Source of the DNA: Butyrivibrio proteoclasticus
GTDB lineage: Bacteria; Bacillota; Clostridia; Lachnospirales; Lachnospiraceae
Assembly: GCF_900115735.1 (NCBI RefSeq)
Contig: NZ_FOXO01000020.1
Span: 1-64,000 of the forward strand
Direction of reading: 5' to 3'
DNA length: 64,000 nucleotides
A program made the position numbers and the translations under genes. Each line of letters starts with the position of its first letter. Positions within the stretch are counted from its first letter, which is position 1. Of the stretch, positions 27,636 to 61,809 are shown piece after piece. The notes beneath the pieces were generated by a model that did no database searches, was not told the DNA's origin, and worked only from the letters and a program-made list of their open reading frames with translations.

Positions 27636-27782
27636 ATGACATCTTGAACTAAATTCCAGAAATCCGCATATACTGCGGATTTCGTGAGAATATGAGTGAA
27701 GAGTCAACCAAGCCTCATCGACGAAGTCGATTTAAATTAGCTTGGTTGATGCATTCTTGAATTGTTGATTCAAGAATGCATA
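27636..27782 (+). repeat. Structured repeat family, copy A
   Basis: This 147-nt unit is 98% identical to the unit at 51437. Stem 1 (27660-27682) pairs AAATCCGCA with TGCGGATTT. Stem 2 (27704-27749) pairs TCAACCAAGC with GCTTGGTTGA and encloses ATCGAC-GAA-GTCGAT. Stem 3 (27749-27781) pairs ATGCATTCTTGAAT with its complement. The 5' arm TCTTGAA (27642-27648) can pair with the same 3' arm as stem 3. The rest of the gap 27485-27808 has only promoter-like AT-rich sequence. Confidence 0.85.
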
Positions 27783-27808
27783 TTACTATGAGTGGGGGAT
27801 TATGGACA

Positions 27809-29623
27809 ATGGAGGAAGGCATCTTTAGGGGAAGAAAGATACAGTTTTCGCAGGACTATCTAAATCTGAAGCAGAGTAAGCAGATCCAGGCGCTTGCGTG
27901 CATCGGAATCATGATACATCACGTCACACAGCAGATAACGTCATATGGAAATAATCCTAAAGGACCCATCACTGTATTTAGTTACATAGGATTTATGTTC
28001 ACAGCACTGTTCTTTTTCTTTTCTGGATATGGGCTTATCTATAGCTATCTAAGTAAAGAGGACTATCTTGGAGGTTTTCTTAAAAAACGCCTTCCGGCGG
28101 TGCTTATCCCTTTTTGGATTACCAATCTTTTGATTGTTTTGGCCCAGTTGTTCTATAAAAAAGAATCCCTTGGTTTAGTTAAGGGGTTAAAAGAGATACT
28201 TGGTCTTATATTGGTAAACAGTAATGGCTGGTTTGTGATAGAGATTGTTATTTTGTATCTTTTGTTTTATGGCGTTTTTTCAGTTGTGAAGAACAAGGAC
28301 ATGGCGCTGTTTTTGCTGTGTCTTTTAACAGTTGCACTGATTGGATTTAGCTTTTTCCAGGGCCATGATCCATATGAAGGAAAGGTCCACTGGTTTAGAG
28401 GCGAGTGGTGGTACAATTCTACGATCTGCTTTTGCTATGGGCTTATATATGCAAGGTTCAAGGAACAGATAGAGAGTAAATTAAAAAGAGCTTACTATCC
28501 ATTTGTTGTTGTGATGGGAATTCTTACGCTGCTCATGACAGCAGGCAATATCTATTGCCTTGATCACTATGGCTATTATCGTGAATGGGTGCATGATGGG
28601 GCGAGTTTTGCAGCGATAACTCTATTTGTACAGATGGTTACATGTATTATTTTTACGACTTTTGTGCTTCTTCTCAATATGAGATTCCCGCTAAAAAGCA
28701 GAATACTTGAGTATCTTGGGAGCATTTTGCTTCCGCTGTTTTTGGTACATGGCTATGTGGTGAATACTCTTTTGCATGATATAAGGGTGAGTGACTTGTT
28801 AAGATATGTGATCATAATTGGCGTAAGTATAGGCCTTGCGGCTGTCATCGCGCCGGTTACAAATTTTGCTGTCAAGGCTGTAAAAGAACTTTTGAATAAT
28901 TCTTTTGAAACAACGAAGAGCAAAAAAACAAATTTAAAAAAGGTAGCGATCATTTTAGCTCTTATGTGCGGCTTGGCAGTAATAGCAATCCCTGTAATCC
29001 ATTCAGTTGTTATTTCAAAAGAATTCAGTGAAGAATGCGCTGTTTTTAAGGATGCGCAGGTGGGCGATGTAGTAAAGTTTGGGCATTATAATACCAAGAT
29101 TAACAATCCCGGGAAAGAGAGGCTGACCTGGGAAGTTGTAAAGAGGCAGGACGACAGGCTGTGCCTTATGTGCGAGTATGGAATCGCAGGAAGCTATTAC
29201 AATCAGCATCATCAGGAGATAACCTGGGAAGATTCAGATATTAGAAAGCTTATAAATTCAAAAGAGTTCACGGGGAGCTTTAGTGGTAAGGAAGCGGATA
29301 TCATCCTTCAAAATGATGGGGATATGCTGACTTTGTTAACCCCTGAGGAAGCAGAAGAGTTTTTTGAAAATGATGAGGCAAGGCAAATTGCAATAACAGA
29401 TGTTGCGACCAGAAACGGAGTGAACATCAACACTCCCAGCAAGGTCAACAATTGGGATATGAAAGGCTACAGATCCTCATGGTGGTGGCTTAGAGGTGAA
29501 AATACAACTCCATGTATAACTGCACCAATTGTAACGGTTGACGGAACAATCGTTATGGATGAAAAAGTAGTAAATAAGCCAGGTGGGGCAATAAGACCTG
29601 TTGTTTGGATTTTATTGCGTTAA
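27809..29623 (+). CDS. Acyltransferase 3-family protein with DUF6273-like tail
   Basis: This 604-aa protein has about 10 TM helices with the acyltransferase-3 hallmark (QALACIGIMIHHV, catalytic His near 40, and FFFFSGYGLIYSY). After a last TM helix near residue 400 comes an outside domain (VGDVVKFGHYNTKI...WEVVKRQDDRLCLMCEYGIAG...WWWLRG) of the DUF6273 type. It probably O-acetylates surface glycans. The start chosen has GGGGGA 10 nt upstream; longer starts fall inside repeat A. If they were used, the repeat would fold over the coding start. Confidence 0.82.
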   Translation: MEEGIFRGRKIQFSQDYLNLKQSKQIQALACIGIMIHHVTQQITSYGNNPKGPITVFSYIGFMFTALFFFFSGYGLIYSYLSKEDYLGGFLKKRLPAVLIPFWITNLLIVLAQLFYKKESLGLVKGLKEILGLILVNSNGWFVIEIVILYLLFYGVFSVVKNKDMALFLLCLLTVALIGFSFFQGHDPYEGKVHWFRGEWWYNSTICFCYGLIYARFKEQIESKLKRAYYPFVVVMGILTLLMTAGNIYCLDHYGYYREWVHDGASFAAITLFVQMVTCIIFTTFVLLLNMRFPLKSRILEYLGSILLPLFLVHGYVVNTLLHDIRVSDLLRYVIIIGVSIGLAAVIAPVTNFAVKAVKELLNNSFETTKSKKTNLKKVAIILALMCGLAVIAIPVIHSVVISKEFSEECAVFKDAQVGDVVKFGHYNTKINNPGKERLTWEVVKRQDDRLCLMCEYGIAGSYYNQHHQEITWEDSDIRKLINSKEFTGSFSGKEADIILQNDGDMLTLLTPEEAEEFFENDEARQIAITDVATRNGVNINTPSKVNNWDMKGYRSSWWWLRGENTTPCITAPIVTVDGTIVMDEKVVNKPGGAIRPVVWILLR

Positions 29624-29707
29624 ACCGGTAGCGTATTTTGAGGCGTTAGTGTATAATTTTTTTTATGCTTTTTTGAAAGAAGTTATTATAGATTGGAGAG
29701 TAGTATT

Positions 29708-31075
29708 TTGAAACAGGAACACAGAGGATCTTTTTCAGGAAAAATTGGTTTTGTATTGTCTGCGGCAGGCGCGTCAGTAGGCTTGGGAAATATTTGGAGA
29801 TTCCCTTATCTTTGCGCTAAATATGGCGGAGGAATCTTCCTTATCGTGTATATTCTTTTGGCGCTTACATTTGGATATACCATGATAATTGCTGAGACTG
29901 CTATTGGAAGATATACCAAGAAAAGTCCGGTTGGAGCATTTAACAGTATCAGCAACAATAAATGGATGGGACTTGGCGGATGGATCAATGCTATTATCCC
30001 GATTTTGATCGTCCCCTATTATTCAGTAATTGGCGGTTGGGTATGCAAATATCTTTATGAATACATCACAAATGATGTGAATGTGATAGCGGGTGATACC
30101 TTTTTTACCGATTTTATAACTGATGGTATTGCGTCAGAGATTTGGTTTGTAGTCTTTGCTGCTCTTGTCATGATAGTAATATTCATGGGAGTTGAGGGCG
30201 GAATAGAGCGTGTATCAAAAATGGTTATGCCTGTTCTTGTGGTAATTGCAGTTATTATCTGTGTATACTCAGTAACAAGACCGGGTGCTTTGGAGGGGGT
30301 AAAATACCTCTTTGTCCCTAATTTCCAGCACTTTTCCATTATGACTATAGTTACAGCTATGGGCCAGATGTTTTATTCCTTATCAATAGCGATGGGAATC
30401 CTTATCACTTTCGGCTCATATGTAAAAAAGGAAGTCAGCATTGAAGGTTCAACCAAGCAGGTTGAGTTCTTTGACACCATAATAGCTATTCTTGCCAGCC
30501 TTATGATCATTCCTGCAGTATTCTCTTTTTATCACGGAGATGAGAGCATGCTCAAGGCAGGACCATCACTTATGTTCATAACTATGCCACAGATATTTGC
30601 AAGCATGGGATTTGGTAAGATTATAGGAATCCTTTTCTTTGCACTTGTTTTGTTTGCGGCAGTTACGAGTGCCATTGCACTTACAGAGAGCGCAGTTTCA
30701 ACATTTTCTGATGAGTTTAAATGGAGCAGAAAAAAGGGAAGCATAATAATGATTGTCATCATGCTTGTACTTGGAAGCCTTTCATCCCTTGGAAATGGGC
30801 CTCTTAGCTCTGTGACAATAATAGGAATGCAGTTCCTTGATTTCTTTGATTTCCTTACAAACTCAGTTATGATGCCTATAGCAGCTGTCGCTACATGTGT
30901 ACTTATAACCAGGTTTATGGGAATTGATAAGCTTGAAGCGGAAGTTGAGCAGGATGGACATCCATTCAAAAGAAAAAGAGTCTTCTCTTTTATGATCAGA
31001 TTCCTTTGTCCTTTATTTGTTCTTATTATTTTAGTAAGTGCGATACTTAATGTATTTGGCATCATAAATATGTAA
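29708..31075 (+). CDS. Sodium-dependent (NSS/SNF) transporter
   Basis: This 455-aa transporter begins with KIGFVLSAAGASVGLGNIWR, the TM1 sodium-site motif of the neurotransmitter:sodium symporter family. FPYLCAKYGGG follows, and about 11-12 TM helices are present, as in bacterial LeuT-like proteins. It imports amino acids or amines. TTG is the likely start, 7 nt after GGAGAG; a second in-frame TTG upstream lacks such a site. A terminator follows. Confidence 0.9.
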   Translation: MKQEHRGSFSGKIGFVLSAAGASVGLGNIWRFPYLCAKYGGGIFLIVYILLALTFGYTMIIAETAIGRYTKKSPVGAFNSISNNKWMGLGGWINAIIPILIVPYYSVIGGWVCKYLYEYITNDVNVIAGDTFFTDFITDGIASEIWFVVFAALVMIVIFMGVEGGIERVSKMVMPVLVVIAVIICVYSVTRPGALEGVKYLFVPNFQHFSIMTIVTAMGQMFYSLSIAMGILITFGSYVKKEVSIEGSTKQVEFFDTIIAILASLMIIPAVFSFYHGDESMLKAGPSLMFITMPQIFASMGFGKIIGILFFALVLFAAVTSAIALTESAVSTFSDEFKWSRKKGSIIMIVIMLVLGSLSSLGNGPLSSVTIIGMQFLDFFDFLTNSVMMPIAAVATCVLITRFMGIDKLEAEVEQDGHPFKRKRVFSFMIRFLCPLFVLIILVSAILNVFGIINM

Positions 31076-31079
31076 TAGA

Positions 31080-31118
31080 AAATGCGGCATAAACAGTTGA
31101 TTTATGCCGCATTTATTG
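31080..31118. terminator. Bidirectional terminator
   Basis: AATGCGGCATAAA pairs with TTTATGCCGCATT around CAGTTGA, between convergent transporter and GT2 genes, with A and T runs on both sides. Confidence 0.85.
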
Positions 31119-31121
31119 ATA

Positions 31122-32144
31122 TCAATTGGTTTTTTTGTCATATATACTAATGATTAACTTGCATAAACTTACGGTAAATGCATTGGGATGTCTTATACAG
31201 GTATAGAGTAATCGGTTTGATCTGGAAGTGATGTTTACCTTGGTTGACATCACTTTTTTTCTTATATCAGGGCTCAGGAATATTTCCCTGACACCTTTGA
31301 TGGTGCCCATGTCAGTGCTTCTAAGTACATTTTTTAGCACAATGAGCAGCATAATGACATATTCCCTGTCCATTTGTCTGTCATAATCAGGTATATTTTT
31401 GTCGGCGAAAATACTTCTAAAGGTTTTATCGGTAAGTTCAAGATTGGTAAGCAGTTTGGGACTGTAGGAATGGGCGATGGATGAACCTACAAGTCTGTAG
31501 TGATAAAAATATCCTTCCTTTACTATTACAAGTCTTTTACAGTCCAGAAGGCACGGAAGAATAATGTTCACGTCTTCACTCATAGAGATGTCAGTATTGC
31601 AGTATTTCAGATTCTCCATAAGGAGCTTTCTTGAAATAAGCTTCATACATCTGGACATGGTGATCGGTCGTACTTCATCGCCGAGAATGTGCGAATGTAG
31701 CTCTTCGAGGTCTTTTCCCATATAAATTCCAGGTGCAAGAGACTGAGTTTCCTTGCGGCGTTCGCCTGCTTTTTCAACAATGTAGTTGCTGGAAATAATT
31801 TCTGAATCTGTAAAAGATGGGTCAGTGAATGCCATCAGTTCTTTTGCCAAATCAAGGTCAATCCAGTCATCGCTGTCTACATAAGATAAGTAATCAGATG
31901 TGGCGGCTTTCGAACCCTCAATCCATGCGGACATGAGACCTCCGTTTGCCTTGTGTATTACTTTGACACGTGTATCTTTGTCTGCGTACTTATCACAAAG
32001 TACAGGACTAATACCATCGGTTGAACCATCATCTACAATGATTATCTCTATATCTGAAAATGTCTGTCCTAAAACAGAATCCATACACTTGGCAATGTAT
32101 TTGGCTGTGTTATATACGGGAATGATAAAGCTGATTTTTGCCAT
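31122..32144 (-). CDS. Family 2 glycosyltransferase
   Basis: This 340-aa GT-A enzyme begins ISFIIPVYNTAKYIAKCMDS and has IIIVDDGSTDG (nucleotide binding) and YLSYVDSDDWIDLD (DxD metal site). The C-terminal 120 residues are helical with no membrane segment. It probably adds sugars to a surface polymer or teichoic acid-like chain. An AGGAG site precedes the ATG. It is single-gene between two convergent units. Confidence 0.9.
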   Translation of the reverse strand: MAKISFIIPVYNTAKYIAKCMDSVLGQTFSDIEIIIVDDGSTDGISPVLCDKYADKDTRVKVIHKANGGLMSAWIEGSKAATSDYLSYVDSDDWIDLDLAKELMAFTDPSFTDSEIISSNYIVEKAGERRKETQSLAPGIYMGKDLEELHSHILGDEVRPITMSRCMKLISRKLLMENLKYCNTDISMSEDVNIILPCLLDCKRLVIVKEGYFYHYRLVGSSIAHSYSPKLLTNLELTDKTFRSIFADKNIPDYDRQMDREYVIMLLIVLKNVLRSTDMGTIKGVREIFLSPDIRKKVMSTKVNITSRSNRLLYTCIRHPNAFTVSLCKLIISIYDKKTN

Positions 32145-32286
32145 TAAAATGCTCCTAAAAATATTCTTAGATTATAATAGCATACAGCATTTTTTTAAAC
32201 AAAGAGTAATGATGATTGAGATGGCGTTTATATGAATTTTAGGTTAGAATTATAGGTATAAAAATCTCTTTTTGGAGGTATCGAGT

Positions 32287-32793
32287 ATGGGCAAGGTTTT
32301 TCATGTTGACAAGCAGATAGCAAACAAAAATGTTGAGGATTCCATCACAGAATGGACTAAGGTGGTTAAGTATGATGATATCAACGCCGAGGACAGACTT
32401 TTCGGCGGAAAACTTATGAGCTGGATCGATGAGGTTGCAGGAACAGTAGCTGTAAGGCATTCAGGAAATCCTATAGCTACGGCAGCAATCGACAATATGC
32501 AGTTCAAACAGGGGGCAGTTCTCGGAGATGTTCTTGTAATGATAGGCAAGATCACATATGTTGGCAAAACTTCAATGGAAGTAAGGGTAGATACCTATGT
32601 TGAGGATGTTAAGACGGGAATGCGCCATGTGCTCAACAGAGCATATCTTACTGAGGTGTGCATCGATGACGACGGGACACCATGCCTTGTTCCTTACGGA
32701 CTTAATATAAAGACTGAAAATGAAAAGGCTGAGTGGGAGGGTGCCATCAAGAGGCGTGAATTCCGCAAACAGCGCAGAATGGAAGGATTCTAA
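32287..32793 (+). CDS. Acyl-CoA thioesterase (hotdog fold)
   Basis: This 168-aa hotdog protein has NAEDRLFGGKLMSWIDEVAG (about 39-58), the catalytic Asp-helix of the YciA/BFIT-type thioesterases, and a CoA-binding basic C-terminus. It hydrolyses acyl-CoA esters. It precedes ptb-buk but is separated from them by a terminator-like hairpin, so it is probably a separate transcript. TTGGAGG gives the ATG used here. Confidence 0.85.
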   Translation: MGKVFHVDKQIANKNVEDSITEWTKVVKYDDINAEDRLFGGKLMSWIDEVAGTVAVRHSGNPIATAAIDNMQFKQGAVLGDVLVMIGKITYVGKTSMEVRVDTYVEDVKTGMRHVLNRAYLTEVCIDDDGTPCLVPYGLNIKTENEKAEWEGAIKRREFRKQRRMEGF

Positions 32794-32837
32794 ATTCTAA
32801 TAAAAAATTTATAAAGACGTTGAAATTAACAATAGGG

Positions 32838-32880
32838 AGTGTTAAACTTTTGTCATATGGCGAAGTTTAACACTTTCTTT
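32838..32880 (+). terminator. Terminator after thioesterase gene
   Basis: AGTGTTAAACTT pairs with AAGTTTAACACT around a 13-nt loop, followed by TTCTTT. The ptb start is 30 nt further on. Confidence 0.72.
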
Positions 32881-32909
32881 AGTTTATAGACAAATGGAGG
32901 TTTATTAAA

Positions 32910-33818
32910 ATGAGTAAGAGTTTTGACGACATTCTTGCTAAACTTAAGACAGCAAGCACCAAGAAAATGTCTGTTGCAGTTGCACAGGACACACACGTAC
33001 TTGAGGCTGTCAAGATTGCAAAAGAGAGAGGAATCGTAGATTCTATCCTTGTTGGTGATAAGGACCTGATCGAGGAGAAGGCAAAAGAGGTTGAAATGGA
33101 CCTTTCTGACTTTGAGATCATTGATGTTAAGGATACTATTGAGGCAGCTCGTACTGCAGTTTCACTTGTGTCATCAGGCAAGGCTGATATTTACATGAAG
33201 GGTGCTCTTGAGTCAAAAGACTTCCTTAAGAGCGTTCTTGATAAAGAAGTTGGTCTTCGTACAGGCCGTCCGCTTTCTCATGTTTGCGTATTTGAAATTC
33301 CAGGCATTGATCGTCTCTTATTCCTTACAGACGTTGCTTTCATGCCATATCCAACACTTGAAGATAAGAAAGTTATTATTGAATATACAGTAGATGTTGC
33401 AAGAGCTTGCGGTGTTGACTGCCCTAAGGTTGCTCCACTTGCAGCAGTAGAAGTTGTTAACCCTAAGATGCCTGTTACTGTTGAGGCAGCAGAGCTCACA
33501 AGACTTAACGAAGAGGGCGAGATCAAGAACTGTATCGTTGACGGACCTCTTTCAATGGACCTTGCAATTGATCCTGAGGCAGCTCAGCACAAAGCAGGAG
33601 CACTTGACAGAAAGATCGTCGGCGATGCTGATATCCTTCTTTTCCCTGATATCCACGCAGGAAACCTTACATACAAGACTATCGTAAGACTTGCGAAGGT
33701 TAAGAACGGTAACATTCTTACAGGAACAAAGGCACCGGTAATCCTTACATCAAGATCAGATTCTGTTGAAGTTAAGGTTAACTCAATCGCACTTGCTGCA
33801 GTAGTAGCAAATAAGTAA
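32910..33818 (+). CDS. ptb: Phosphate butyryltransferase
   Basis: This 302-aa enzyme of the phosphate acetyl/butyryltransferase family converts butyryl-CoA and phosphate to butyryl-phosphate. The Ptb pattern is clear: [16 protein letters not shown] (about 117-132), [11 protein letters not shown], and a C-terminal [20 protein letters not shown]. It is full length. With buk 61 nt downstream it forms the butyrate kinase route to butyrate and ATP. A GGAGG site is 8 nt before the ATG. Confidence 0.95.
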
Positions 33819-33827
33819 GCTGAGAGA

Positions 33828-33858
33828 ACTTGACGAGGTTTTGTCGAGGCGTAACTAC
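33828..33858 (+). repeat. Degenerate hairpin-repeat-like sequence between ptb and buk
   Basis: ACT-T-GAC is followed by the 13-nt loop-like GAGGTTTTGTCGA, matching the family at 100 and 7092. The 3' arm (GGCGTAACT) no longer pairs with the 5' arm. It may be a decayed copy or chance. Confidence 0.35.
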
Positions 33859-33879
33859 ATTAAAAATAGGAGAATAATC

Positions 33880-34944
33880 ATGATAAAAAGTTTGATCATA
33901 AATCCCGGTTCTACTTCTACAAAAGTTGGTATTTTTGAAGATGAGACTCTTGTAAAAGAGGAAACATTAAGACACAGCACTGAGGAGATCAATCAGTTCG
34001 CAAGCATAATCGATCAGAAGGATTTCCGTAAGAACATCATTCTTGATTTCCTAAAAAAAGAGAGTATTGATATTAAGTCTTTTAACGTAATAGTTGGAAG
34101 GGGCGGTCTCTTAAGACCTATCCCGGGCGGCACATATGAGTGCACAGATGCTCTTTTAGAGGATCTTAGAAAGGGTGTTCAGGGCCAGCATGCTTCTAAC
34201 CTTGGCGGCATCCTTGCAAGAGAGATCGGTGATGAGATCGGTGTTCCTTCTTACATTGTTGACCCTGTTGTAGTTGACGAGATGGAACCTGTAGCACGTA
34301 TTTCAGGTGTTCCTGAGATTGAACGTGTATCTATCGACCATCCTCTTAATCAGAAAGCTGTTGCAAGAAGATACGCTAAAGAAATTGGCAAAAAATATGA
34401 CGAGATCAGTGTAATTGTTGTACACATGGGTGGTGGTACATCAACAGGTGTTCACAAAAACGGCAAGATGATAGATGTTTACGCAGCACTTAACGGTGAC
34501 GGTGCATTTTCACCTGAGAGAGCCAATGGTATTCCTGCAAAGGCTCTTGTAGATATGTGCTTCTCAGGCAAGTACACATATGATGAGATGAAGAAGAAAA
34601 TCGTCGGAGGCGGCGGACTTAATGCATATCTTGGAACTAACGATATGAGAGAAGTTAACAAGATGTGCGAAGAGGGTAATGAGAAGGCTATTCTTGTCCG
34701 TGATGCTTTTGTTTACCAGATTTGTAAAAACATTGGTGCTTGCGCAACAGTACTAAAGGGTAAAGTTGACCAGATCATTCTTACAGGTGGTATTGCTTAC
34801 GGCCAGGTGATCACTGATGCCATCAAAGAGAGAGTTGACTGGATCTGCCCTGTAACTGTATATCCGGGCGAGGATGAGCTTCTTGCTCTTGCACAGGGTG
34901 CTATTCGAGTACTTAATGGTGAGGAACAGGCAAAAGAATATTGA
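33880..34944 (+). CDS. buk: Butyrate kinase
   Basis: This 354-aa ASKHA-family kinase transfers phosphate from butyryl-phosphate to ADP. The phosphate-1 motif [19 protein letters not shown] is at the N-terminus, [20 protein letters not shown] is the phosphate-2 region, and ILTGGIAYG marks the adenosine site. The ATG has AGGAG at 8 nt; a longer frame starts inside the ptb-buk spacer and has no such site. It ends in a strong terminator. Confidence 0.95.
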
Positions 34945-34956
34945 TAATTTATCAGT

Positions 34957-34987
34957 GGTGTCGGTCATTTTGACCGGCACCTTTTTG
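34957..34987 (+). terminator. Terminator of the ptb-buk operon
   Basis: GGTGTCGGTCA pairs with TGACCGGCACC (one T.G) around TTT and is followed by TTTTT. Confidence 0.88.
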
Positions 34988-35122
34988 CGCATGAGGGGCA
35001 TGTCATTAGATATTTGCTATGACGACAAGCGTATTGAAAAGCTATTATTAATCTGCTACAATGTACAACGGACTTTTGCTAAAATATTGGGTTATTATGC
35101 CCTTTTTTATGAGGAATAAAAC

Positions 35123-37687: not shown

Positions 37688-37707
37688 GTAATTAGAAAGG
37701 TAAGTAT

Positions 37708-51359: not shown

Positions 51360-51436
51360 TATTTTGAGGGATGCATAACCAGAGAGTGGTAAGCTTTTTG
51401 TTTCTCTGGTATCGTTCACAATGATTTGATAAAAGT

Positions 51437-51583
51437 ATGACATCTTGAACTAAATTCCAGAAATCCGCATATACTGCGGATTTCGTGAGAACATGAGTGA
51501 AGAGTCAACCAAGCCTCATCGACGAAGTCGATTTAAATTGGCTTGGTTTATGCATTCTTGAATTGTTGATTCAAGAATGCATA
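51437..51583 (+). repeat. Structured repeat family, copy B
   Basis: This copy is 147 nt long and differs from copy A at only three positions (51492, 51540, 51549). Stem 1, the ATCGAC-GAA-GTCGAT hairpin and the ATGCATTCTTGAAT stem are kept. The change at 51549 removes only the closing C-G pair of stem 2. It lies in the 410-nt spacer between the XRE gene and glf. Confidence 0.88.
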
Positions 51584-51640
51584 AAATAGCTATGCGACTT
51601 ATTTCGTATTGGTAAAATAAGTCGCATAGCTATTTTTTTA
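51583..51640. terminator. Long perfect hairpin with T run
   Basis: A 21- or 22-bp perfect stem (AATAGCTATGCGACTTATTT and its complement) encloses a 10-nt loop and is followed by TTTTTTTA. It begins exactly at the end of repeat B. It may terminate in both directions or be a cruciform left by insertion. Confidence 0.82.
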
Positions 51641-51696
51641 TTTTATATTCATTTGTTCGAGATAAAACATTTATGAGATCACTGGAAACTGTGCAT

Positions 51697-51727
51697 TTGT
51701 TGTTATATGAGCAAAGTTTGTTATAAT
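51697..51727 (+). promoter_or_regulatory. Promoter of glf
   Basis: TTGTTG and TATAAT are separated by 19 nt (18 with TTATAA), followed by AATAGGAGAAAG and ATG. The only consensus-like -10 in this spacer is here. Confidence 0.55.
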
Positions 51728-51768
51728 GAAGTAGTTATTATTATAAGTTGAGAATAGGAGAAAGTATC

Positions 51769-52968: not shown

Positions 52969-53070
52969 AACGTTTGCAATAATTTATACTTTTTTAATTT
53001 TTATTTTGAATATGTTTATTGACTTATTGGCAAGTTTAGGTAAATATATAAGTAACTAAATGTGGCTAGG

Positions 53071-53124
53071 TGTGCCCTCGCGCGGCAGATGCCAAAGGAT
53101 TGGCAGAGGAAAGGACTCGTGCGT
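53071..53124 (+). ncRNA. Candidate structured leader of the FliD-like gene
   Basis: CGCGCG (53079-53084) pairs with CGTGCG (53118-53123), enclosing TGCCAA-AGGA-TTGGCA. CCTC (53076-53079) could also pair with GAGG (53106-53109), making a pseudoknot. It is much richer in GC than its surroundings and ends 20 nt before the ribosome site. Confidence 0.4.
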
Positions 53125-53151
53125 TATCAAGGAAGAAAGGAGGGGCTACAT

Positions 53152-54456: not shown

Positions 54457-54507
54457 GATCGCGCTTAAGTTACCTTTTCTGCAGGAAGGTGACTTGAAAT
54501 TATATAT

Positions 54508-54545
54508 AGAAGCGGTATACATCATGTGTATGCCGCTTCTTTGCG
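54508..54545 (+). terminator. Terminator after FliD-like gene
   Basis: AGAAGCGGTATACA pairs with TGTATGCCGCTTCT (one T.G) around TCATG. A second hairpin AAGTTACCTT/AAGGTGACTT lies just upstream (54468-54495). Confidence 0.72.
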
Positions 54546-54638
54546 TTTGGCTTTACTTTGAAAAGCGTTGTTTTGCTCAGATGCGGTTTGTGGGGATGGC
54601 TTGTATCGTGTATAATGGCGTAAGTGAGGTAAATACTG

Positions 54639-56552
54639 ATGATATTTTGGACGACAGTTGCGGCTATGTTGGCTTTAAGTATTTGCATAGCTGATAGATA
54701 TAAGGTTAGTATTGGGGATGGAATAGCACTATCAGGCGCCACGACAATTTTGCTTCTTTATATTCTTGCTTTTTTCAGGGGAATGAAGCTTATAGGAGTT
54801 GTTGGACTTGTGTTTGTTGTGGTGATTCTGTTGGGGAGTTTTTTTTCTGCTAAGAAAAATAATGCGGAAAAGACCACAAAAAAAGAGCCTTTTTGTGGAT
54901 TTTCATTAAAAATATATGCGCTGGATCCCTTATTTATCATGTTTGTTGCAGTTGTAGCAATAGTTACAATACTTACAAGGCAGCAGGTGTTTTCATGGTG
55001 GGATGATATTAATTTTTGGTCATCTGATGCAAAACAGCTTTTTTATATGAATGGATTTCCGGGAAAATATGGAAATGTTTCTCCTGAATTTGGGGATTAT
55101 CCACCGGTCACATCTATATTTAAATGGCTTTTTTTACAGATCAGCTCTGGCAGTTATAATGAGAGTCTTCAATTTGCTGGCTATTTTTCACTGAACCTCA
55201 TTTTTCTTATGCCTCTTGCAGGCAAATTAAGAAAGTGGATAGGGGATGGATGGGGGGTCGGAGCCTTAAAAAAAACAACTCTTCAGGTGACCTCCTTTGC
55301 GGTGGTAGCGCTATTGCCTGGTGTATTTAATGGGATAATCTATTACGGAACACCGGCTGATATAACCATGGGAATAGTGTATGGAGCGCTTCTTCTTGCT
55401 ATTTATGATCAGGATATTGTTGATGAAAGTTTTTACTATGTCAGGATTGCTCTTTATTCTTCGGTTCTTTTTTTGACTAAATCCGTGGGCATTGAGTGGG
55501 CGATATTTGCATTCCTGTTTTACCTGTTTACCCGGAAAAAGAGCTGGAAAATACTGATATCCTGTGCTGTGTCTGGTGGCTTTTATATGAGCTGGCTTTT
55601 GTTCTGTTTTATAAATAGAAGAGTTGCAAAGCTGACAGGAGCAGGACTACGTATGGCGACTTCAGGTACTTATACTGCACCTCAGAACACTTTGGAAAAG
55701 GCCGGGTATTTTATAGAAGGCTTCTGGACAATGCCGATGCATGCGGATTCAAATCTTACATTTGATATTTCAACGGGGGCGGCAGTATTGATCCTTGCGG
55801 CATTTCTTTTTGCTTTAAAAAGAAGTGGAATCCTGAATGCGGTGGAGGCAAAGAAGATAGGAATTTTTCTTGGAATATCAGGACTTTTATGCTATGGAAT
55901 CATATTCCTTGCACATATTTCCATTTTTCAGACGGAAGATCAGTATCTCGACGCCTATGCAATGGCGGTTTCCATTTCCAGATATGCTTGTCCGTTTACT
56001 CTTGGTGGTTTTTATCTTATTATGGGAGTCTTTTGTAATGGATGTAGTAAAGTCTCTCTTAAAATCAGTAAGCGGATTGGTATTGCATTTCTTATGTTTG
56101 TTCTTTTGACAGCAGATTATACAGGCGTATACAAGCATTTGTGGGGATACAGAAAAAGTGTAGAGGAAAATATAAAATATTGTTATGATATGGTTGACGA
56201 TGAGGGAAGAATCCTGGTGGATAACCTTGTTCAAAACGAGAGCCTTTGGGGAAAACGAGTTCTTGTCATGAGAGACGGGCATACATATACGTGGGTTCAT
56301 GATACTTACATTAGTAAAGAGGCTTCGCCTGTGGCTTTGGTTTATGATGGCTATCTTGCAGAACAGGAAAGCTTTGGGGATATGGCAAACAAGATATTAA
56401 CAAGCCATGCTTCATATTTATATGTGGAAGATGTGGATGGAACGGCAGCAGAGCTTTTTGATCCACTGATGAAGAATGGAGAAAAATTTATTCCAAGTAC
56501 CGTTTATAAAATTGAAATAAGTGAAAAAGGAGTTGTTCTTACTTCAATATGA
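54639..56552 (+). CDS. GT-C-like polytopic membrane protein
   Basis: This 637-aa protein has about 11-13 TM helices. An acidic outside loop (WWDDINFWSSDAKQ, about 113) after the early helices resembles the metal/donor site of GT-C glycosyltransferases, which use lipid-linked sugars. The C-terminal 110 residues are outside. It is translationally coupled to a DPM1-like GT2, which makes lipid-linked sugars, so donor supply and transfer may be paired. Family cannot be named with certainty. Confidence 0.62.
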   Translation: MIFWTTVAAMLALSICIADRYKVSIGDGIALSGATTILLLYILAFFRGMKLIGVVGLVFVVVILLGSFFSAKKNNAEKTTKKEPFCGFSLKIYALDPLFIMFVAVVAIVTILTRQQVFSWWDDINFWSSDAKQLFYMNGFPGKYGNVSPEFGDYPPVTSIFKWLFLQISSGSYNESLQFAGYFSLNLIFLMPLAGKLRKWIGDGWGVGALKKTTLQVTSFAVVALLPGVFNGIIYYGTPADITMGIVYGALLLAIYDQDIVDESFYYVRIALYSSVLFLTKSVGIEWAIFAFLFYLFTRKKSWKILISCAVSGGFYMSWLLFCFINRRVAKLTGAGLRMATSGTYTAPQNTLEKAGYFIEGFWTMPMHADSNLTFDISTGAAVLILAAFLFALKRSGILNAVEAKKIGIFLGISGLLCYGIIFLAHISIFQTEDQYLDAYAMAVSISRYACPFTLGGFYLIMGVFCNGCSKVSLKISKRIGIAFLMFVLLTADYTGVYKHLWGYRKSVEENIKYCYDMVDDEGRILVDNLVQNESLWGKRVLVMRDGHTYTWVHDTYISKEASPVALVYDGYLAEQESFGDMANKILTSHASYLYVEDVDGTAAELFDPLMKNGEKFIPSTVYKIEISEKGVVLTSI

Positions 56553-57595
56553 TTACACCGATTATTATCCCGGCTTACGAACCGGATGAGAAACTGATAA
56601 AGCTTGTGGATGAATTGAATAGTGCTTTGGTAAGACCGATCATTGTTGTAAATGATGGCTCGGACAAAGAAAGATTCGGACACGTTTTTAAAAGCGTTAA
56701 AGAGAGAGGGGCTATTGTTCTTGAACATGCGGTCAATATGGGAAAGGGCAGGGCGCTTAAGACTGCTTTTAACTATTGCCTTAATGAATATGAGGATCTG
56801 GCAGGAGTGATAACTGCTGATTCTGATGGACAGCACACTGTTTCTGATATTAAAAAGTGTAAGGGAGCTCTTTTAGCTGATTCTGGAGCTCTTGTACTGG
56901 GCGTGAGAAACTTTGATGAAGGCGGAATACCTGCAAGGTCTGTATTTGGAAACAAGTTGACACGCATGATAATGAAACTGCTTGTGGGGCTATCGATAAG
57001 TGATACTCAGACAGGGCTCAGGGGAATTGGTACTTGCTTTATGAAATATCTTTTGACTGAAGATGGAGAGCGCTTTGAATTTGAGACCAACATGCTGATA
57101 GCAACAAAGGATCAGGGGATTAATATTATTGAGGTACCTATAAGTACAATATATTTAGAAGAAAATAAGTCGAGTCATTTTAATCCGATAGTAGATTCAA
57201 TAAGGATTTATGCAATATTCCTTAAGTTTTTATTTTCTTCTTTGTCATCAAGTGTTGTTGATATAGTGATGTTCAGTATATTCTGTGCTATCTTTAGGAA
57301 TGTTCCAACGGCGATAGGATATATCATGCTTTCAACGATTCTTGCCAGGATTATTTCTGCAATTTACAATTTTGCTATTAACTATGGAATTGTGTTCAAA
57401 GGAAAAGGAAGTAAAATAAATGCTGCAATAAAATATTTTGCGCTTGCAGTTTGCATTATGTTATTGAGTGGCTTCTTTGTAACGATAGGACATGGATTGT
57501 TTGGCGACGTGCCGGAAATAGTTGTGAAGGTACCTGTTGATTGTTTGCTTTTTTTACTCAGCTTTATCGTTCAGAGGGAAATTGTTTATAAATAA
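56549..57595 (+). CDS. Dolichyl-phosphate-mannose-synthase-like GT2 with GtrA domain
   Basis: The N-terminal GT2 domain (ITPIIIPAYEPDEKLIKLVD, VVNDGSDK, ITADSDGQH as DxD) is followed by a GtrA membrane domain with four TM helices (about 235-345). It probably loads a sugar on undecaprenyl phosphate and flips or anchors it. The start overlaps the GT-C-like gene by 4 nt, so the two are co-translated. Confidence 0.86.
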   Translation: MITPIIIPAYEPDEKLIKLVDELNSALVRPIIVVNDGSDKERFGHVFKSVKERGAIVLEHAVNMGKGRALKTAFNYCLNEYEDLAGVITADSDGQHTVSDIKKCKGALLADSGALVLGVRNFDEGGIPARSVFGNKLTRMIMKLLVGLSISDTQTGLRGIGTCFMKYLLTEDGERFEFETNMLIATKDQGINIIEVPISTIYLEENKSSHFNPIVDSIRIYAIFLKFLFSSLSSSVVDIVMFSIFCAIFRNVPTAIGYIMLSTILARIISAIYNFAINYGIVFKGKGSKINAAIKYFALAVCIMLLSGFFVTIGHGLFGDVPEIVVKVPVDCLLFLLSFIVQREIVYK

Positions 57596-57603
57596 AAAAG
57601 TCA

Positions 57604-57632
57604 TTGACTAAGATTAGTTACTATGATATATT
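57604..57632 (+). promoter_or_regulatory. Promoter of rpmG-secE-nusG
   Basis: TTGACT and TATATT are spaced by exactly 17 nt, with a weak GAC...GTC hairpin plus T run following (possible attenuator) before a GGAGGTGAG ribosome site. Confidence 0.72.
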
Positions 57633-57729
57633 AAACAAGCGACTAAAGATTTACGTCTTTTTTTTATGCAAAAAAATGATGATAAAAGGCGCAAAGTTAA
57701 GATAATTAGAACACACCGGAGGTGAGATT

Positions 57730-57879
57730 ATGCGTACAAGAATTACATTAGCATGTACAGACTGCAAGAATCGTAACTATGACACAACAAAGGATAAGAA
57801 GACACATCCTGATCGTGTTGAGATGAAGAAGTACTGCCCATTCTGCAAGAAGCATACATTACACAAGGAAACAAAGTAA
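57730..57879 (+). CDS. rpmG: 50S ribosomal protein L33
   Basis: This 49-aa protein is a typical L33: [17 protein letters not shown] with CxxC, then [17 protein letters not shown] with the second CxxC, so the zinc-binding form is encoded. The frame falls below the length of a normal gene scan. GGAGGTGAG precedes the ATG. It opens the rpmG-secE-nusG order. Confidence 0.95.
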
Positions 57880-57911
57880 TTTCATTCCTTATTAGGAGGG
57901 AGACTGCGGGT

Positions 57912-58208
57912 ATGGAAGAGACCAAGGTAGTAGATAATAAGTCTGAGCAGACTAAGAGCTCTTCTGCCAAGAAAAACAAGAAATCAAAGAACGGACTTCT
58001 TGGAAAGATCGGTGCAGTGATCACTAAGATAGGTGATTTCTTTACTGGGGTTAAGGCGGAGTTTGGCAAGATTATTTGGCCAACAAAGGATGATGTGATT
58101 AAGCAGACAACGGCTGTTGTTGTAGTGTCAATAATTTGTTGTGCTCTTATAGCTGTATTGGACTATGCGTTTGAATATGGTATGAATTTCATAACATCTA
58201 TATTCTAA
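57912..58208 (+). CDS. secE: Preprotein translocase subunit SecE
   Basis: This 98-aa SecE has a charged N-terminal region (about 1-40), FTGVKAEFGKIIWPTKDDV as the amphipathic helix, and a single TM helix (AVVVVSIICCALIAVLDYAF). It stabilises SecY in the channel. It lies between rpmG and nusG, which is the normal place. Confidence 0.94.
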   Translation: MEETKVVDNKSEQTKSSSAKKNKKSKNGLLGKIGAVITKIGDFFTGVKAEFGKIIWPTKDDVIKQTTAVVVVSIICCALIAVLDYAFEYGMNFITSIF

Positions 58209-58223
58209 TTTAAAGGAGATAAT

Positions 58224-58847
58224 ATGTCAGAAGAAATGGAAAAATCTTTTGAATCTGATGAGCAGTTTGAAAATGCAGAAGCTCCTGTTAATGAGGAGAT
58301 TGAAACTCCTGCTGCAGAGCCTGTAAATGAGAATGCTCATTGGTATGTTGTTCATACATATTCAGGATATGAGAACAAAGTAAAGGCCAATCTTGAGAGC
58401 GCTATTGTTAATAGACATCTTGAGAATCAGATTTTTGAGGTTAGAGTTCCTCTGCAGGATGTTGTTGAAGTTAAGAATGGTGTGCGCAAGAATGTGCAGA
58501 GAAAAATGTTTCCTGGTTATGTCCTTGTTAACATGGATATGAATGATGAAACTTGGTACGTAGTTCGTAATACACGTGGAGTTACAGGCTTCGTTGGACC
58601 GGGAAGTAAACCAGTTCCGCTTACAGATGCAGAGATTAAACCTCTCGGAATCAAGACTGACACAATTTCTGTTGATTTCTCGGTTGGAGATGAAATTGCT
58701 GTTGTTGCCGGTGTTTGGAAAGACACTGCCGGTGTTGTTCAAAGAATGGACTTTGGCAAACAGACAGCTACGATCAATGTTGATTTGTTTGGTCGTGAGA
58801 CTCCGGTTGAGATTAGTTTTGCGGAAGTTAGAAAGATTGATTCATAA
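58224..58847 (+). CDS. nusG: Transcription termination/antitermination protein NusG
   Basis: This 207-aa protein has the NGN domain (HWYVVHTYSGYENKVKANLE, about 33-52) and a C-terminal KOW motif (VGDEIAVVAGVWKDTAGVVQ). The first 30 residues are an acidic tail not found in shorter NusG. It binds RNA polymerase and adjusts elongation. It is 15 nt after secE and ends before the rplK leader. Confidence 0.95.
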   Translation: MSEEMEKSFESDEQFENAEAPVNEEIETPAAEPVNENAHWYVVHTYSGYENKVKANLESAIVNRHLENQIFEVRVPLQDVVEVKNGVRKNVQRKMFPGYVLVNMDMNDETWYVVRNTRGVTGFVGPGSKPVPLTDAEIKPLGIKTDTISVDFSVGDEIAVVAGVWKDTAGVVQRMDFGKQTATINVDLFGRETPVEISFAEVRKIDS

Positions 58848-58904
58848 TTGATATGATATTCGATGCGTGAGCATTTGAATATAAATTGCAATCATTAGAT
58901 TGCA

Positions 58905-59060
58905 CGTAACCGCTGAGTGGGAGCGACTCCCATCATGCGTCTTTCACATGATGGTGGAGTCGCCCCTGTGAAAAGTCCCAGACTCGTTTTTTTTGAGTCT
59001 GTTGGACTTGACCACGGGAGCAAAAACCGTATGGGAGTCGCGTCCGACCACATATTTTCA
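58905..59060 (+). promoter_or_regulatory. Structured leader of rplK-rplA with alternative pairings
   Basis: Hairpin 1 joins GCGACTCC-CATCATG with CATGATG-GT-GGAGTCGC. Hairpin 2 joins CCCAGACTC with GAGTCTG. The same GCGACTCCCAT (58923-58933) can instead pair perfectly with ATGGGAGTCGC (59031-59041), just before the ribosome site. L1 is known to control the L11 operon through its leader; this could be the regulated switch. Confidence 0.55.
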
Positions 59061-59072
59061 GGAGGTGCCATT

Positions 59073-59498
59073 ATGGCAAAGAAAGTCGAAGGATACATTA
59101 AGTTACAGATCCAGGCTGGTAAAGCAACACCAGCACCACCAGTTGGACCAGCACTTGGTCAGCATGGTGTAAACATCGTTGAATTTACAAAGCAGTTCAA
59201 CGCTCAGACAGCAGATAAGGGTGATGTTATCATCCCTGTTGTTATCACAGTTTATGCAGACAGAAGTTTCACATTCATCACAAAAACTCCACCTGCTGCA
59301 GTTCTTCTTAAGAAGGCAGCTAAGATTCAGAAGGGTTCAGGAGTTCCTAACAAGACTAAGGTTGCAAAGATTTCTAAGGAAGAAATTAGAAAGATTGCAG
59401 AAACAAAGATGCCTGACCTCAATGCTGTTGATATCGATGGTGCTATGAGCATGATCGCTGGTACAGCACGTAGTATGGGAATCGTAGTAGAAGACTGA
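59073..59498 (+). CDS. rplK: 50S ribosomal protein L11
   Basis: This 141-aa L11 has the Pro-rich N-terminal domain ([20 protein letters not shown], about 13-32) and the rRNA-binding C-terminal domain ([12 protein letters not shown]). The start is the ATG after GGAGGTG; a longer frame runs into the leader. It is followed by rplA after 13 nt, the usual pair. Confidence 0.96.
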
Positions 59499-59511
59499 TG
59501 GAGGATGAGAG

Positions 59512-60201
59512 ATGAAACACGGAAAGAAATACGTTGAAGCTGCTAAGCTTATTGATAAGACACAGCAGTATGAAGCCGCTGATGCAATAGCTCTTGTTAA
59601 GAAGTCAGCTACTGCAAAATTTGATGAGACTGTAGAGGTTCACATCAGAACAGGTTGTGACAGCCGTCACGCTGATCAGCAGATCAGAGGTGCAGTTGTT
59701 CTTCCTAATGGAACAGGTAAGACTGTTAAAGTTCTTGTATTCGCTAAGGGCACAAAGCTTGACGAAGCTCAGGCTGCAGGTGCAGATTTCGTTGGTGGTG
59801 AGGAACTTATTCCAAAGATCCAGAACGAAGGATGGCTTGACTTTGATGTTGTTGTTGCAACACCTGACATGATGGGCGTTGTAGGACGTCTTGGTAAAGT
59901 TCTCGGACCTAAGGGTCTTATGCCAAACCCTAAGGCTGGTACAGTTACTATGGATGTTACAAAAGCAGTTAATGATATCAAGGCTGGTAAGATTGAGTAC
60001 AGACTTGACAAGGCTAACATCATCCATGTTCCAGTTGGAAAAGCTTCTTTCTCAGAAGAGCAGCTTGAACAGAACTTTAACGCACTTATGGATGCTATCT
60101 CAAAGGCTAAGCCTTCATCTGTAAAGGGTCAGTACCTCAAGAGCATTACTCTTGCTACAACAATGGGACCTGGCGTAAAGGTTGTATCTAACAAATATTA
60201 A
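59512..60201 (+). CDS. rplA: 50S ribosomal protein L1
   Basis: This 229-aa protein shows the L1 pattern: [20 protein letters not shown] in domain I and [20 protein letters not shown] in domain II. It binds 23S rRNA and, in known species, its own mRNA leader. GATGAGAG precedes the ATG. A strong terminator follows, ending the rplK-rplA transcript. Confidence 0.96.
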
Positions 60202-60219
60202 TTTGCATAGGCGCAAGTT

Positions 60220-60254
60220 AGGAGCGAATCGTTTTACGATTCGCTCCTTTTTAT
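60220..60254 (+). terminator. Terminator after rplA
   Basis: AGGAGCGAATCG pairs perfectly with CGATTCGCTCCT around TTTTA and is followed by TTTTTATT. Confidence 0.9.
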
Positions 60255-60347
60255 TGTAACAGAAGGCTACAGATTGATGATTGTATATAAATTCATTTAC
60301 TTGTTGCAAAAATAGAAAGACACAATATATTGTGATATTATAAGATA

Positions 60348-61598
60348 ATGAAAAATAAATATAGCCATGAAAAAAATACAAACGGAACTTCTGCTGTAAG
60401 AATTTTTTTGATTACATTATCAATCATACTTATAGTTGGAATTCCTTCTTTGTTTGTTATAAAGAGTATTAATGAGTCACCCGAAATCGGAGAGGTGAAA
60501 CTTGCAAGTGGTTGGGAAAAGATTCCTGAAGCAGGTGTTGTTGAGAATGTTGTGGTACCTGAAGAGAAACAAGTGGAAAGTGAATTGGTTGTTCTTGAGG
60601 AAGATGAAGCGTACACTCATGTTATAGAAACAGCTTCTGATGAATCTGTTACCATAGGTTTTGCCGGAGATATTTTGTTTGATGACAATTATGCAGTCGG
60701 GAATGCTTTTAAAAATGCTGGGAATTCTGCTGAAGGAGTCGTGGGGCAAAGCCTTCTTGAAAAAATGAGAAATGCAGATATCATGATGGTCAACAACGAG
60801 TTCCCATACTCATATGGAGGAGTACCTACTGAAGGAAAAACTTATACATTTAGAGCAAAACCTGAGACGGCGTCGATTTTAAATGAAATGGGAGTCGATA
60901 TTGTTGGCCTTGCAAATAATCATGCCTATGACTATGGCGAACAGGCGCTTCTTGACACTTTTGATACGCTGGATAGTGTAGGAGTTGCCTACGCAGGAGC
61001 TGGTCACAGTATAGAGGAGGCTTCTCATCCTGTGTACTATATTACAAGTAACGGGATGAGAATCGCTATTATATGCGCAACTCAGATAGAAAGACTTGAT
61101 AATCCTGATACAAAAGGTGCAACAGACTCTACTCCCGGTGTTTTCAGATGCCTTGACGATACTCTTTTACTTGAAAAAGTCAGAGAAGCTCGGGAAAAAA
61201 ATGCTTATGTAATAGTATTTATACATTGGGGAACGGAGAGTACTTCTGAAATTGATTATCTTCAGGCAGATCAGGCGAAGGAAATAGTGGATGCTGGAGC
61301 TAATCTTATAATTGGAGCACATCCACATGTGCTTCAAAAAATTGATTATGTAAATGGCGTTCCTGTTATTTATAGTTTGGGAAATTATATTTTTAACTCA
61401 AAGACTCAGGATACAGGAATGATATTGACAACAATTCATAATGATGGTGTTGTTAATATTCAGTTTATACCAGCAATTCAAAGTGGCTGTTCAGTATATG
61501 AGCCATCTGACGAGGAGAGGCTTCGCATTCTTAATGAAATGGCAGGGATGTCTCCGGGAATTACACTGGATACAAATGGGTATATTACAAAAAGGTGA
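60348..61598 (+). CDS. CapA-family protein (poly-gamma-glutamate synthesis-like)
   Basis: This 416-aa protein has an N-terminal TM anchor (about 20-40), then the CapA metallophosphatase-like core: VTIGFAGDILFDD (metal ligands), NNEFPYS, GLANNHAYDYGEQALLDT, VIVFIHWGTE and IIGAHPHVLQK. It is an outside enzyme of cell-surface polymer metabolism. No capBC genes are here. It is inserted between rplA and rplJ, which are usually adjacent, and is followed by repeat C. Confidence 0.86.
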   Translation: MKNKYSHEKNTNGTSAVRIFLITLSIILIVGIPSLFVIKSINESPEIGEVKLASGWEKIPEAGVVENVVVPEEKQVESELVVLEEDEAYTHVIETASDESVTIGFAGDILFDDNYAVGNAFKNAGNSAEGVVGQSLLEKMRNADIMMVNNEFPYSYGGVPTEGKTYTFRAKPETASILNEMGVDIVGLANNHAYDYGEQALLDTFDTLDSVGVAYAGAGHSIEEASHPVYYITSNGMRIAIICATQIERLDNPDTKGATDSTPGVFRCLDDTLLLEKVREAREKNAYVIVFIHWGTESTSEIDYLQADQAKEIVDAGANLIIGAHPHVLQKIDYVNGVPVIYSLGNYIFNSKTQDTGMILTTIHNDGVVNIQFIPAIQSGCSVYEPSDEERLRILNEMAGMSPGITLDTNGYITKR

Positions 61599-61623
61599 AA
61601 GCTTTGCCTGAGTTATGGAAAAA

Positions 61624-61809
61624 TACGTAATATGAAGAAAGCAGATGTTACTGTTCAGACAGAAATGCGCACTAAGCTGCGCATTTCGTGAGAACTTGAT
61701 ACGGGAGTGAGCGCATTCCATCGACGAAGTCGATTTGGAATGCGCGAAGTGGTTACTGGAGCGAGCTGTATGCGAGTGAACAGTAACAAGCAGATGGAAA
61801 TATTACGTA
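61624..61809 (+). repeat. Structured repeat family, copy C, with flanking duplications
   Basis: Core 61647-61787 starts GTTACTGTTC and ends GAACAGTAAC. It is flanked by AAGCAGATG direct repeats (61639, 61788). Stem 1 (AAATGCGCA with TGCGCATTT), stem 2 (GCGCATTCC with GGAATGCGC) and the inner ATCGAC-GAA-GTCGAT hairpin match copies A and B. An outer palindrome TACGTAATAT/ATATTACGTA lies beyond. GTTACTG (61752) repeats the 5' arm, so it competes for the same 3' arm. Confidence 0.85.

What the first reader, a model, noticed from the sequence alone, without database searches (positions are those of the whole stretch)
27636..61809. Repeat family with covarying stems (copies at 27636, 51437, 61624)
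Copies A and B (147 nt, three differences) and copy C share almost no sequence outside short blocks, yet keep one secondary structure. Stem 1 changes one pair with compensation (AAATCCGCA/TGCGGATTT to AAATGCGCA/TGCGCATTT). Stem 2 is rewritten wholly (TCAACCAAGC/GCTTGGTTGA versus GCGCATTCC/GGAATGCGC) around the constant ATCGAC-GAA-GTCGAT hairpin. CGTGAGAA after stem 1 is also constant. All copies are in the + orientation in spacers. This looks like a selected RNA or single-stranded-DNA structure, not neutral repeat decay, and I cannot match it to a named family.
Basis: partly seen in the sequence, partly recalled or inferred. Interest (0 to 1): 0.82.

Follow-up and report, generated by a model that had tools for sequence, protein, structure and literature searches.

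The report
Mobile DNA repeats with one fold
The three repeats belong to a large family of short jumping DNA elements in gut and rumen bacteria (Lachnospiraceae) whose letters change freely while one hairpin fold is kept, so the folded single strand, probably as RNA, seems to matter to the element or to its host.

Summary
Copies A and B (three differences) and copy C share a covarying two-helix core and end in a third hairpin. They belong to a mobile family of about 140-nt elements: 59 core-pattern matches in this Butyrivibrio genome, model matches in 57 of 79 Butyrivibrio genomes and in 48 of 397 Lachnospiraceae genomes. On 51 representatives 95.4% of cells pair and 353 cells changed on both sides; slid partners give 31-39% paired, shuffles 102 cells. 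Rfam has no match. Two end types surround one core. Copy C's type has GT(T/A)AC inverted ends and 8-bp target duplications (39 of 50 within one mismatch; control 2.5%). The type of A and B makes no such duplication and inserts 3' of an A-rich GYAT; one filled/empty site fits this. None of 154 lies inside a long ORF; in tandem-gene spacers they lie sense 62, antisense 25 times. Best reading: MITE-like elements moved in trans whose single-stranded fold, probably RNA in host transcripts, is selected. No mobilising enzyme was found and no transcript data exist here. New variant of structured bacterial MITEs (ERIC, BOX).

The parts
27638..27781 (+). copy A, class 1 element (144 nt); left target AAAAAGCAT ends at 27637
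   Evidence: ends from the empty site of a sister element
27659..27683 (+). copy A stem 1 (GAAATCCGCA ... TGCGGATTTC) with the bulged C at 27673
27684..27703 (+). copy A conserved linker GTGAGAATATGAGTGAAGAG
27704..27749 (+). copy A stem 2 (TCAACCAAGCC ... AGCTTGGTTGA) with apical ATCGAC-GAA-GTCGAT at 27717-27731
27750..27781 (+). copy A stem 3, right end TGCATTCTTGAA ... TTCAAGAATGCAT
51439..51582 (+). copy B, class 1 element; left target AAAAGTAT ends at 51438; absent from the orthologous spacer of four relatives; lies between an ORF and a terminator-like inverted repeat
51460..51484 (+). copy B stem 1
51505..51550 (+). copy B stem 2
51551..51582 (+). copy B stem 3, right end
61639..61646 (.). 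left target duplication AAGCAGAT of copy C
61647..61787 (+). copy C, class 2 element (141 nt), ends GTTACTGTTCA / TGAACAGTAAC
61662..61687 (+). copy C stem 1 (GAAATGCGCA ... TGCGCATTTC)
61711..61745 (+). copy C stem 2 (GCGCATTC ... GAATGCGC) with apical ATCGAC-GAA-GTCGAT at 61720-61734
61752..61787 (+). copy C stem 3, right end GTTACTG ... CAGTAAC
61788..61795 (.). right target duplication AAGCAGAT of copy C

Best explanation
The repeats are copies of a family of non-autonomous, MITE-like mobile elements of Lachnospiraceae, about 140 nt long, built as left end - stem 1 - conserved linker - stem 2 - stem 3 (right end). SHOWN: many dispersed, near-identical copies; 8-bp target duplications for class 2; an empty site for class 1; a core whose base pairs are rewritten together across genera. 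INFERRED: (i) movement by enzymes supplied in trans, for class 2 a DDE-type transposase that cuts 8 bp apart, for class 1 a different enzyme that joins the element 3' of an A-rich GYAT without a target duplication. (ii) The selected form is the single strand: the element sits in spacers, mostly sense to the flanking genes, is transcribed with them and folds, so that it is tolerated or tunes the stability of the host mRNA, as reported for ERIC and BOX. (iii) The right-end arm can pair either inside stem 3 or with the left end, so the element has two alternative closings.
For: Covariation far above shuffled and slid controls, including the outer pairs of stem 2, which were not in the structure of the search model. 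8-bp duplications 39 of 50, control 2.5%. Filled and empty site in three strains; copy B absent from four relatives. None of 154 elements inside an ORF of 120 codons or more; sense 62, antisense 25 in tandem-gene spacers, p=9e-5. G.T 29 against A.C 10 in stems, p=0.003. In own class 1 copies 19 of 31 stem substitutions keep a pair, 17% expected, p=4e-8, not corrected for shared descent. Right-end arm can pair both ways in 40 of 50 class 2 elements. One copy nearly identical between two species in a diverged spacer.
Against: No transcript was seen. No mobilising enzyme with these ends was found. Folding energies of sense and antisense strands do not differ (p=0.14). Of the 7 stem substitutions in own class 2 copies 6 break the pair. 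The sense bias could come from selection against antisense insertion for other reasons, such as terminator-like action. The nearly identical copy could have been transferred between species.
Confidence: 0.6

Rival explanations
1. The fold works as single-stranded DNA: it is the substrate that a transposase recognises and moves, as the subterminal hairpins of IS200/IS605 elements are (recalled). Selection then acts on the few active master copies, and resident copies do nothing.
For: Terminal hairpins, no target duplication and a target motif almost wholly on the left side in class 1. Bulged C at the tip of stem 1 and C-GNA-G apical loops, which are also very stable in DNA (recalled; loops read). 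Own class 2 copies show no protection of pairs. Right-end-only and left-end-only pieces exist.
Against: Class 2 has 8-bp duplications, so the core is not tied to one way of moving. The sense bias relative to genes is not expected. The replication-strand bias in G061 (25 of 37 full copies, p=0.047) is weaker than the gene-direction bias of that chromosome. The Y1 transposons of this genome whose ends I could read have unrelated ends.
Confidence: 0.25
2. The core is a cis-regulatory or small RNA of the host that was caught by two unrelated kinds of mobile element and spread as cargo.
For: One core, two end types. A copy upstream of a FapA-like gene is 98-100% identical between G008 and G018 while most flanking 50-base windows are 58-84% identical.
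Against: At that locus only 3 of 20 placed genomes have the element and 17 do not; ten further loci could not be placed. No constant gene partner was noticed. The end types also share the layout left end / copy of the left end / its complement, which argues for common descent of whole elements.
Confidence: 0.1
3. The element is a protein-coding unit (a small conserved peptide).
For: In some other genera the core reads as one open frame (L378, L380, L381; read by eye).
Against: In L386 and L394 both arms of stem 2 are one base shorter than in L378, which keeps the stem and breaks the frame. No Pfam or NCBIfam hit for two peptides read from it.
Confidence: 0.02
4. Neutral palindromic repeat decay, structure without selection.
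For: Inverted repeats fold by themselves.
Against: 353 double-sided changes and 95.4% pairing over 51 diverse representatives, with conserved unpaired linker.
Confidence: 0.01

Closest known systems
ERIC / IRU / RU-1 of enterobacteria (passages of PMC2229807, PMC3049150, PMC10969869 seen)
   Same: Short non-coding spacer element in tens of copies, folded transcript, reported to change the stability of mRNAs it is transcribed with, in one orientation.
   Different: ERIC is described from enterobacteria with TA at its ends; here the ends are GT(T/A)AC with 8-bp duplications or a duplication-free type, the core has separate helices, and the hosts are Lachnospiraceae.
BOX and RUP elements of Streptococcus pneumoniae (passages of PMC3049150 seen)
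   Same: MITE-like repeats with strongly folded transcripts that include the inverted ends in duplexes; co-transcribed with genes.
   Different: BOX is modular (boxA, boxB, boxC) with its own ends and host range; no module of that kind is seen here.
IS200/IS605-derived elements, REP and REPIN (PMC3116915 and PMC3733652: search listing and start of abstract only)
   Same: Class 1: no target duplication, insertion 3' of a short motif, end hairpins, tandem copies.
   Different: No Y1 element with these ends was found here; REPs are 20-40 bp with GTAG or CGTC tags, these are about 144 bp with a long core.
IS66-type transposons (recalled: ends beginning GTAA, 8-bp repeats)
   Same: Class 2: GTAAC ends in other genera (GTTAC in this genome) and 8-bp duplications.
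   Different: IS66 transposase over cut-off in 2 of 5 genomes tested; no matching ends seen.
CIR repeats of Caulobacter (passage of PMC2229807 seen)
   Same: Two-arm RNA structure joined by a linker, conserved between species.
   Different: CIR carry a GANTC methylation motif in a loop and belong to other bacteria; here the linker and bulge are the conserved part.

Membership tests
Bacterial MITE | Short (under 200 bp), multi-copy, intergenic | tested here: met
   141-147 nt; 59 core matches in the own genome; 0 of 154 inside a long ORF
Bacterial MITE | Terminal inverted repeats and target-site duplication | tested here: met
   Class 2 only: 39 of 50 with 8-bp duplication within one mismatch, control 2.5%
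Bacterial MITE | Terminal inverted repeats and target-site duplication, for class 1 | tested here: not met
   Ends are only partly alike and no duplication beyond AT or YAT
Bacterial MITE | Autonomous partner with the same ends | tested here: inconclusive
IS66-derived element | 8-bp direct repeats and ends beginning GTAA (recalled) | tested here: inconclusive
   8 bp met; ends GTAAC in other genera but GTTAC in this genome
IS66-derived element | IS66 transposase with the same ends in high-copy genomes | tested here: inconclusive
   Over cut-off in 2 of 5 genomes; no close end match seen at L406; lines for L407 and L408 were in the cut part of the output
IS200/IS605-derived element (class 1) | No target duplication, insertion 3' of a short fixed motif | tested here: met
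   the AT just before the element was required by the pattern, the bases further left were not
IS200/IS605-derived element (class 1) | Y1 transposase element with the same ends | tested here: not met
   12 Y1 matches in the own genome; the three kinds of element whose ends I could read differ; contig-end copies could not be read fully
REP / REPIN | 20-40 bp palindrome with GTAG or CGTC tag | tested here: not met
   Element size and sequence; definition from the abstract of PMC3733652
ERIC | Enterobacterial repeat with 5'-TA-3' ends | tested here: not met
   Ends and hosts; definition from passages of PMC2229807
Any Rfam family | Match at or above the family's gathering score | tested here: not met
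   Window; eight relatives at permissive threshold, no match over the core
IS110-type bridge RNA | RNA loops complementary to target and donor | not tested
   Considered only; the 8-bp duplications of class 2 speak against it

The most novel reading that the evidence does not exclude
One structured nucleic-acid module, kept across a bacterial family, is what is really propagated, and it has changed its transposition machinery at least once (8-bp-duplication type against the duplication-free, A-rich GYAT type). Its fold is then a transposition or RNP determinant of a mobile RNA-like element, a bacterial counterpart of SINEs in design, rather than a by-product of inverted repeats.
Probability: 0.2. 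Interest if true: 0.88.

Novelty: new variant of a known kind. Interest (0 to 1): 0.68.

Why it matters
It is a strong case, by covariation, of a small bacterial mobile element whose single-stranded fold is under selection across genera, and it makes testable what the fold is for: mobility or host mRNA. It would also explain a recurrent class of repeats in Lachnospiraceae, important gut and rumen bacteria, and it offers a natural comparison in which one core is carried by two modes of insertion.

Tried and rejected
Mobilising enzyme of class 1: the Y1 transposons of the own genome whose ends I could read (three kinds, of 12 matches) have unrelated ends. A scan of 763,209 bases of genome G061, its plasmid included, found full elements, left-end-only and right-end-only pieces, and no longer element with these ends. 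Mobilising enzyme of class 2: IS66 tested in five genomes, no close end match seen (output partly cut). The orphan end at G000:C61:17575 proved to be a stem-3 fragment behind a chloride-channel-like gene.

Lagging-strand targeting: not separable from gene direction. Hairpin-loop targeting of class 1: marginal, 7 of 74 sites with 8 or more flanking pairs against a shuffled mean of 2.4 and maximum of 7 in 200. Viral contigs: 0 for two patterns. Phage collection: five unannotated gut records with partial matches, 48-79% of the query covered. Plasmids: one Butyrivibrio plasmid with five places, and one weak partial match in Ligilactobacillus; none with a query from another genus. Coding: rejected (see rivals). 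Literature: searches gave no paper, none on these repeats; one search listed PMC8040213 (candidate structured RNAs in human microbiomes), whose candidates I could not compare with these. The statement that I know no description in print rests on these searches of an open-access library only.

Rows dropped: A1 used 27 of 32 candidates (three lacking stem 2 and two near-duplicates left out); A2 used 24 of those 27 (three with a shorter stem 2 left out); A4 used 51 of 67 representatives: ten truncated or chimeric, three with other linkers, copy C itself (held as L295, shortened internal loop), and two others (L098, L125:1498) left out by choice. The detectors required most of stem 1 to pair, so stem-1 pairing is partly built in.
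Full report
WHAT WAS CHECKED. The three copies are as described. The constant 15-nt hairpin occurs 49 times in the 4.17-Mb genome with no match to the reversed control, and the stem-1 pattern 59 times, again with no control match. Reading the copies shows two clonal families plus smaller ones: class 1 (copies A and B; target AT | GAC.TCTTGAA ... TTCAAGAATGYAT) and class 2 (copy C; GTTACTGTTCAGACAG ... GAGTGAACAGTAAC). No Rfam family matches the core in the window or in eight relatives searched at permissive thresholds.

SPREAD. The genus is Butyrivibrio (record titles). A covariance model of 24 copies (R1) matches 57 of 79 genomes of the genus and 48 of 397 genomes of the family, in 42 of 334 genera. 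With the second model (R2) 25 of 392 genomes drawn from the order match, one of them outside the family. Copy numbers are lower bounds because the searches score a capped number of candidates. Copies also lie on the 242,710-bp plasmid pNP243 of B. fibrisolvens D1; contig 2 of genome G061 has the same length, so G061 is probably that strain (inference).

STRUCTURE. Over 51 representatives (of 67; the rest are named under Tried and rejected) a 27-pair structure has 95.4% of cells paired. 23 of 27 pairs change on both sides in some sequence, 353 cells in all (shuffled mean 102.4, sd 8.7, 0 of 500 as high), and sliding the partners by 1-3 columns drops pairing to 31-39%. The eleven outer pairs of stem 2 were not part of model R1's structure, yet all eleven change on both sides; the outermost three are paired less often, so this helix as a whole is at 90.2%. 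Examples of stem 2 are GCAAATAGGCC/GGCCTATTTGC, TCAACCAAGCC/GGCTTGGTTGA, GCGCATTC/GAATGCGC, GGAGCAAT/ATTGCTCC and GCAAACTGGTC/GACCAGTTTGC. The conserved part is unpaired: CGTRAGAA.ATGATTCA.GAG in the linker, a C bulged next to the tip of stem 1 beside a covarying tip pair (C-G 27, U-A 22, U-G 2 of 51), AAT or a near variant before the 3' arm of stem 2, and an apical loop that is mostly C-GNA-G. A third hairpin forms the right end. In class 2 its 3' arm can also pair with the left end: both pairings are possible in 40 of 50 elements, the local one alone in 8, neither in 2.

MOBILITY. Class 2: of 17 own-genome copies read, 15 have exact direct repeats of 8 bp (the printout gives 6, because the loose pattern took two flank bases into the element); L016 has one mismatch and L008 matches only with an offset of two. 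Over all held class 2 elements with both ends, 39 of 50 have 8-bp flanks with at most one mismatch, against 2.5% with flanks dealt out anew. Copies from other genera such as L381, L394, L397, L402 and L405 show the same. Class 1: no such repeat. At one site the element is present in this genome and, with a second element in tandem, in strain YAB3001, and absent from G011: AAAGCAT|GAGAATTT empty, AAAGCAT|[GAC...GCAT]|AAGAATTT filled; the one different base in the flank is either a substitution or an end-point ambiguity. Flanks of 74 class 1 copies in three sets show specificity almost wholly on the left: AAAAAGYAT | R in two sets (59 copies) and AAAGTATAT | R in the G061 set (15 copies), the AT at the junction being required by the patterns. 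Copy B is missing from the orthologous spacer in G098, G065, G088 and G099. Outside Butyrivibrio one class 1 type copy was seen (L379).

RNA OR DNA. None of 154 elements lies inside an ORF of at least 120 codons. Between two genes of one direction they are sense 62 times and antisense 25 times, p=9e-5. Within stems G.T exceeds A.C 29 to 10 (p=0.003), which points to the sense strand as the folded one. In own class 1 copies 19 of 31 stem substitutions keep a pair where 17% is expected (p=4e-8, not corrected for shared descent); class 2 shows the opposite on few data (6 of 7 break). Folding energies of the two strands do not differ (p=0.14). The replication-strand bias in G061 (25 of 37, p=0.047) is no more than gene direction would give. 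I therefore favour RNA over single-stranded DNA, about 0.6 to 0.25.

A POSSIBLE DOMESTICATED COPY. Upstream of a FapA-like gene (weak Pfam match PF03961, E=1.2e-4, below its cut-off) the element is 98-100% identical between G008 and G018, while the flanking 50-base windows are 58-84% identical except 90% just upstream and 92% at the far end of the stretch. G099 has it too, with a compensated change in the apical stem (TTTGC-GAA-GCAAA to TTTTC-GAA-GAAAA). The other 17 of 20 placed loci have none there, and ten of the 30 loci could not be placed. Transfer of the segment between species would also explain this.

RELATION TO KNOWN THINGS. It works like ERIC and BOX, small spacer elements with folded transcripts (passages of PMC2229807, PMC3049150 and PMC10969869 seen), but it is a member of neither. 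As a MITE it meets size, copy number and, for class 2, ends and duplication; the partner enzyme is unknown. Class 1 meets two features of IS200/IS605 derivatives and fails the enzyme test in this genome as far as ends could be read. The GTAA ends and 8-bp repeats of class 2 resemble IS66 (recalled), but no IS66 element with such ends was seen.

VERDICT. Most striking is that one covarying core sits between two kinds of ends with two target rules.

Noticed in passing
L218:6685-6933 (Butyrivibrio sp. LB2008): A class 1 element sits inside a cobalamin riboswitch (RF00174, still above the gathering score); the B. hungatei NK4A153 riboswitch (L224:475-608) has no element.
   Followed up: partly
G000:C61 about 17575-17614; L358 minus strand about 10969; L445 minus strand about 12403: Solo right-end hairpins (stem 3) without the core, behind or between genes; the two in G061 share about 56 bp.
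   Followed up: partly
L300-L318, spacer upstream of the FapA-like gene: Other species carry different small inserts, among them GGGGACG-type repeats, at the place where three genomes carry the element: a spacer that collects small repeats.
   Followed up: no
window 61620-61810: Copy C lies inside an older inverted repeat TACGTAATAT ... ATATTACGTA, about 80 nt upstream of an L10 leader (RF00557, 61869-61999).
   Followed up: no
window 18787-18896: A drum RNA (RF02958, 83.4 bits) lies in the window.
   Followed up: no
L378, L380, L381 (other Lachnospiraceae): The core can be read as an open frame (MIQECKNPIAEGDFKWIFA-like), which may be annotated as false small proteins; stem-keeping one-base changes break it in L386 and L394.
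   Followed up: partly
L261 / L265 (G000:C62:9531-9895 and downstream): A broken Y1 transposase gene and a TnpB-like ORF lie just downstream of a class 1 element; their left end is a different hairpin.
   Followed up: partly
L147, L180, L197, L209 and others; L006: Head-to-tail tandem copies are common in both classes, sharing the end or the target repeat between units.
   Followed up: no
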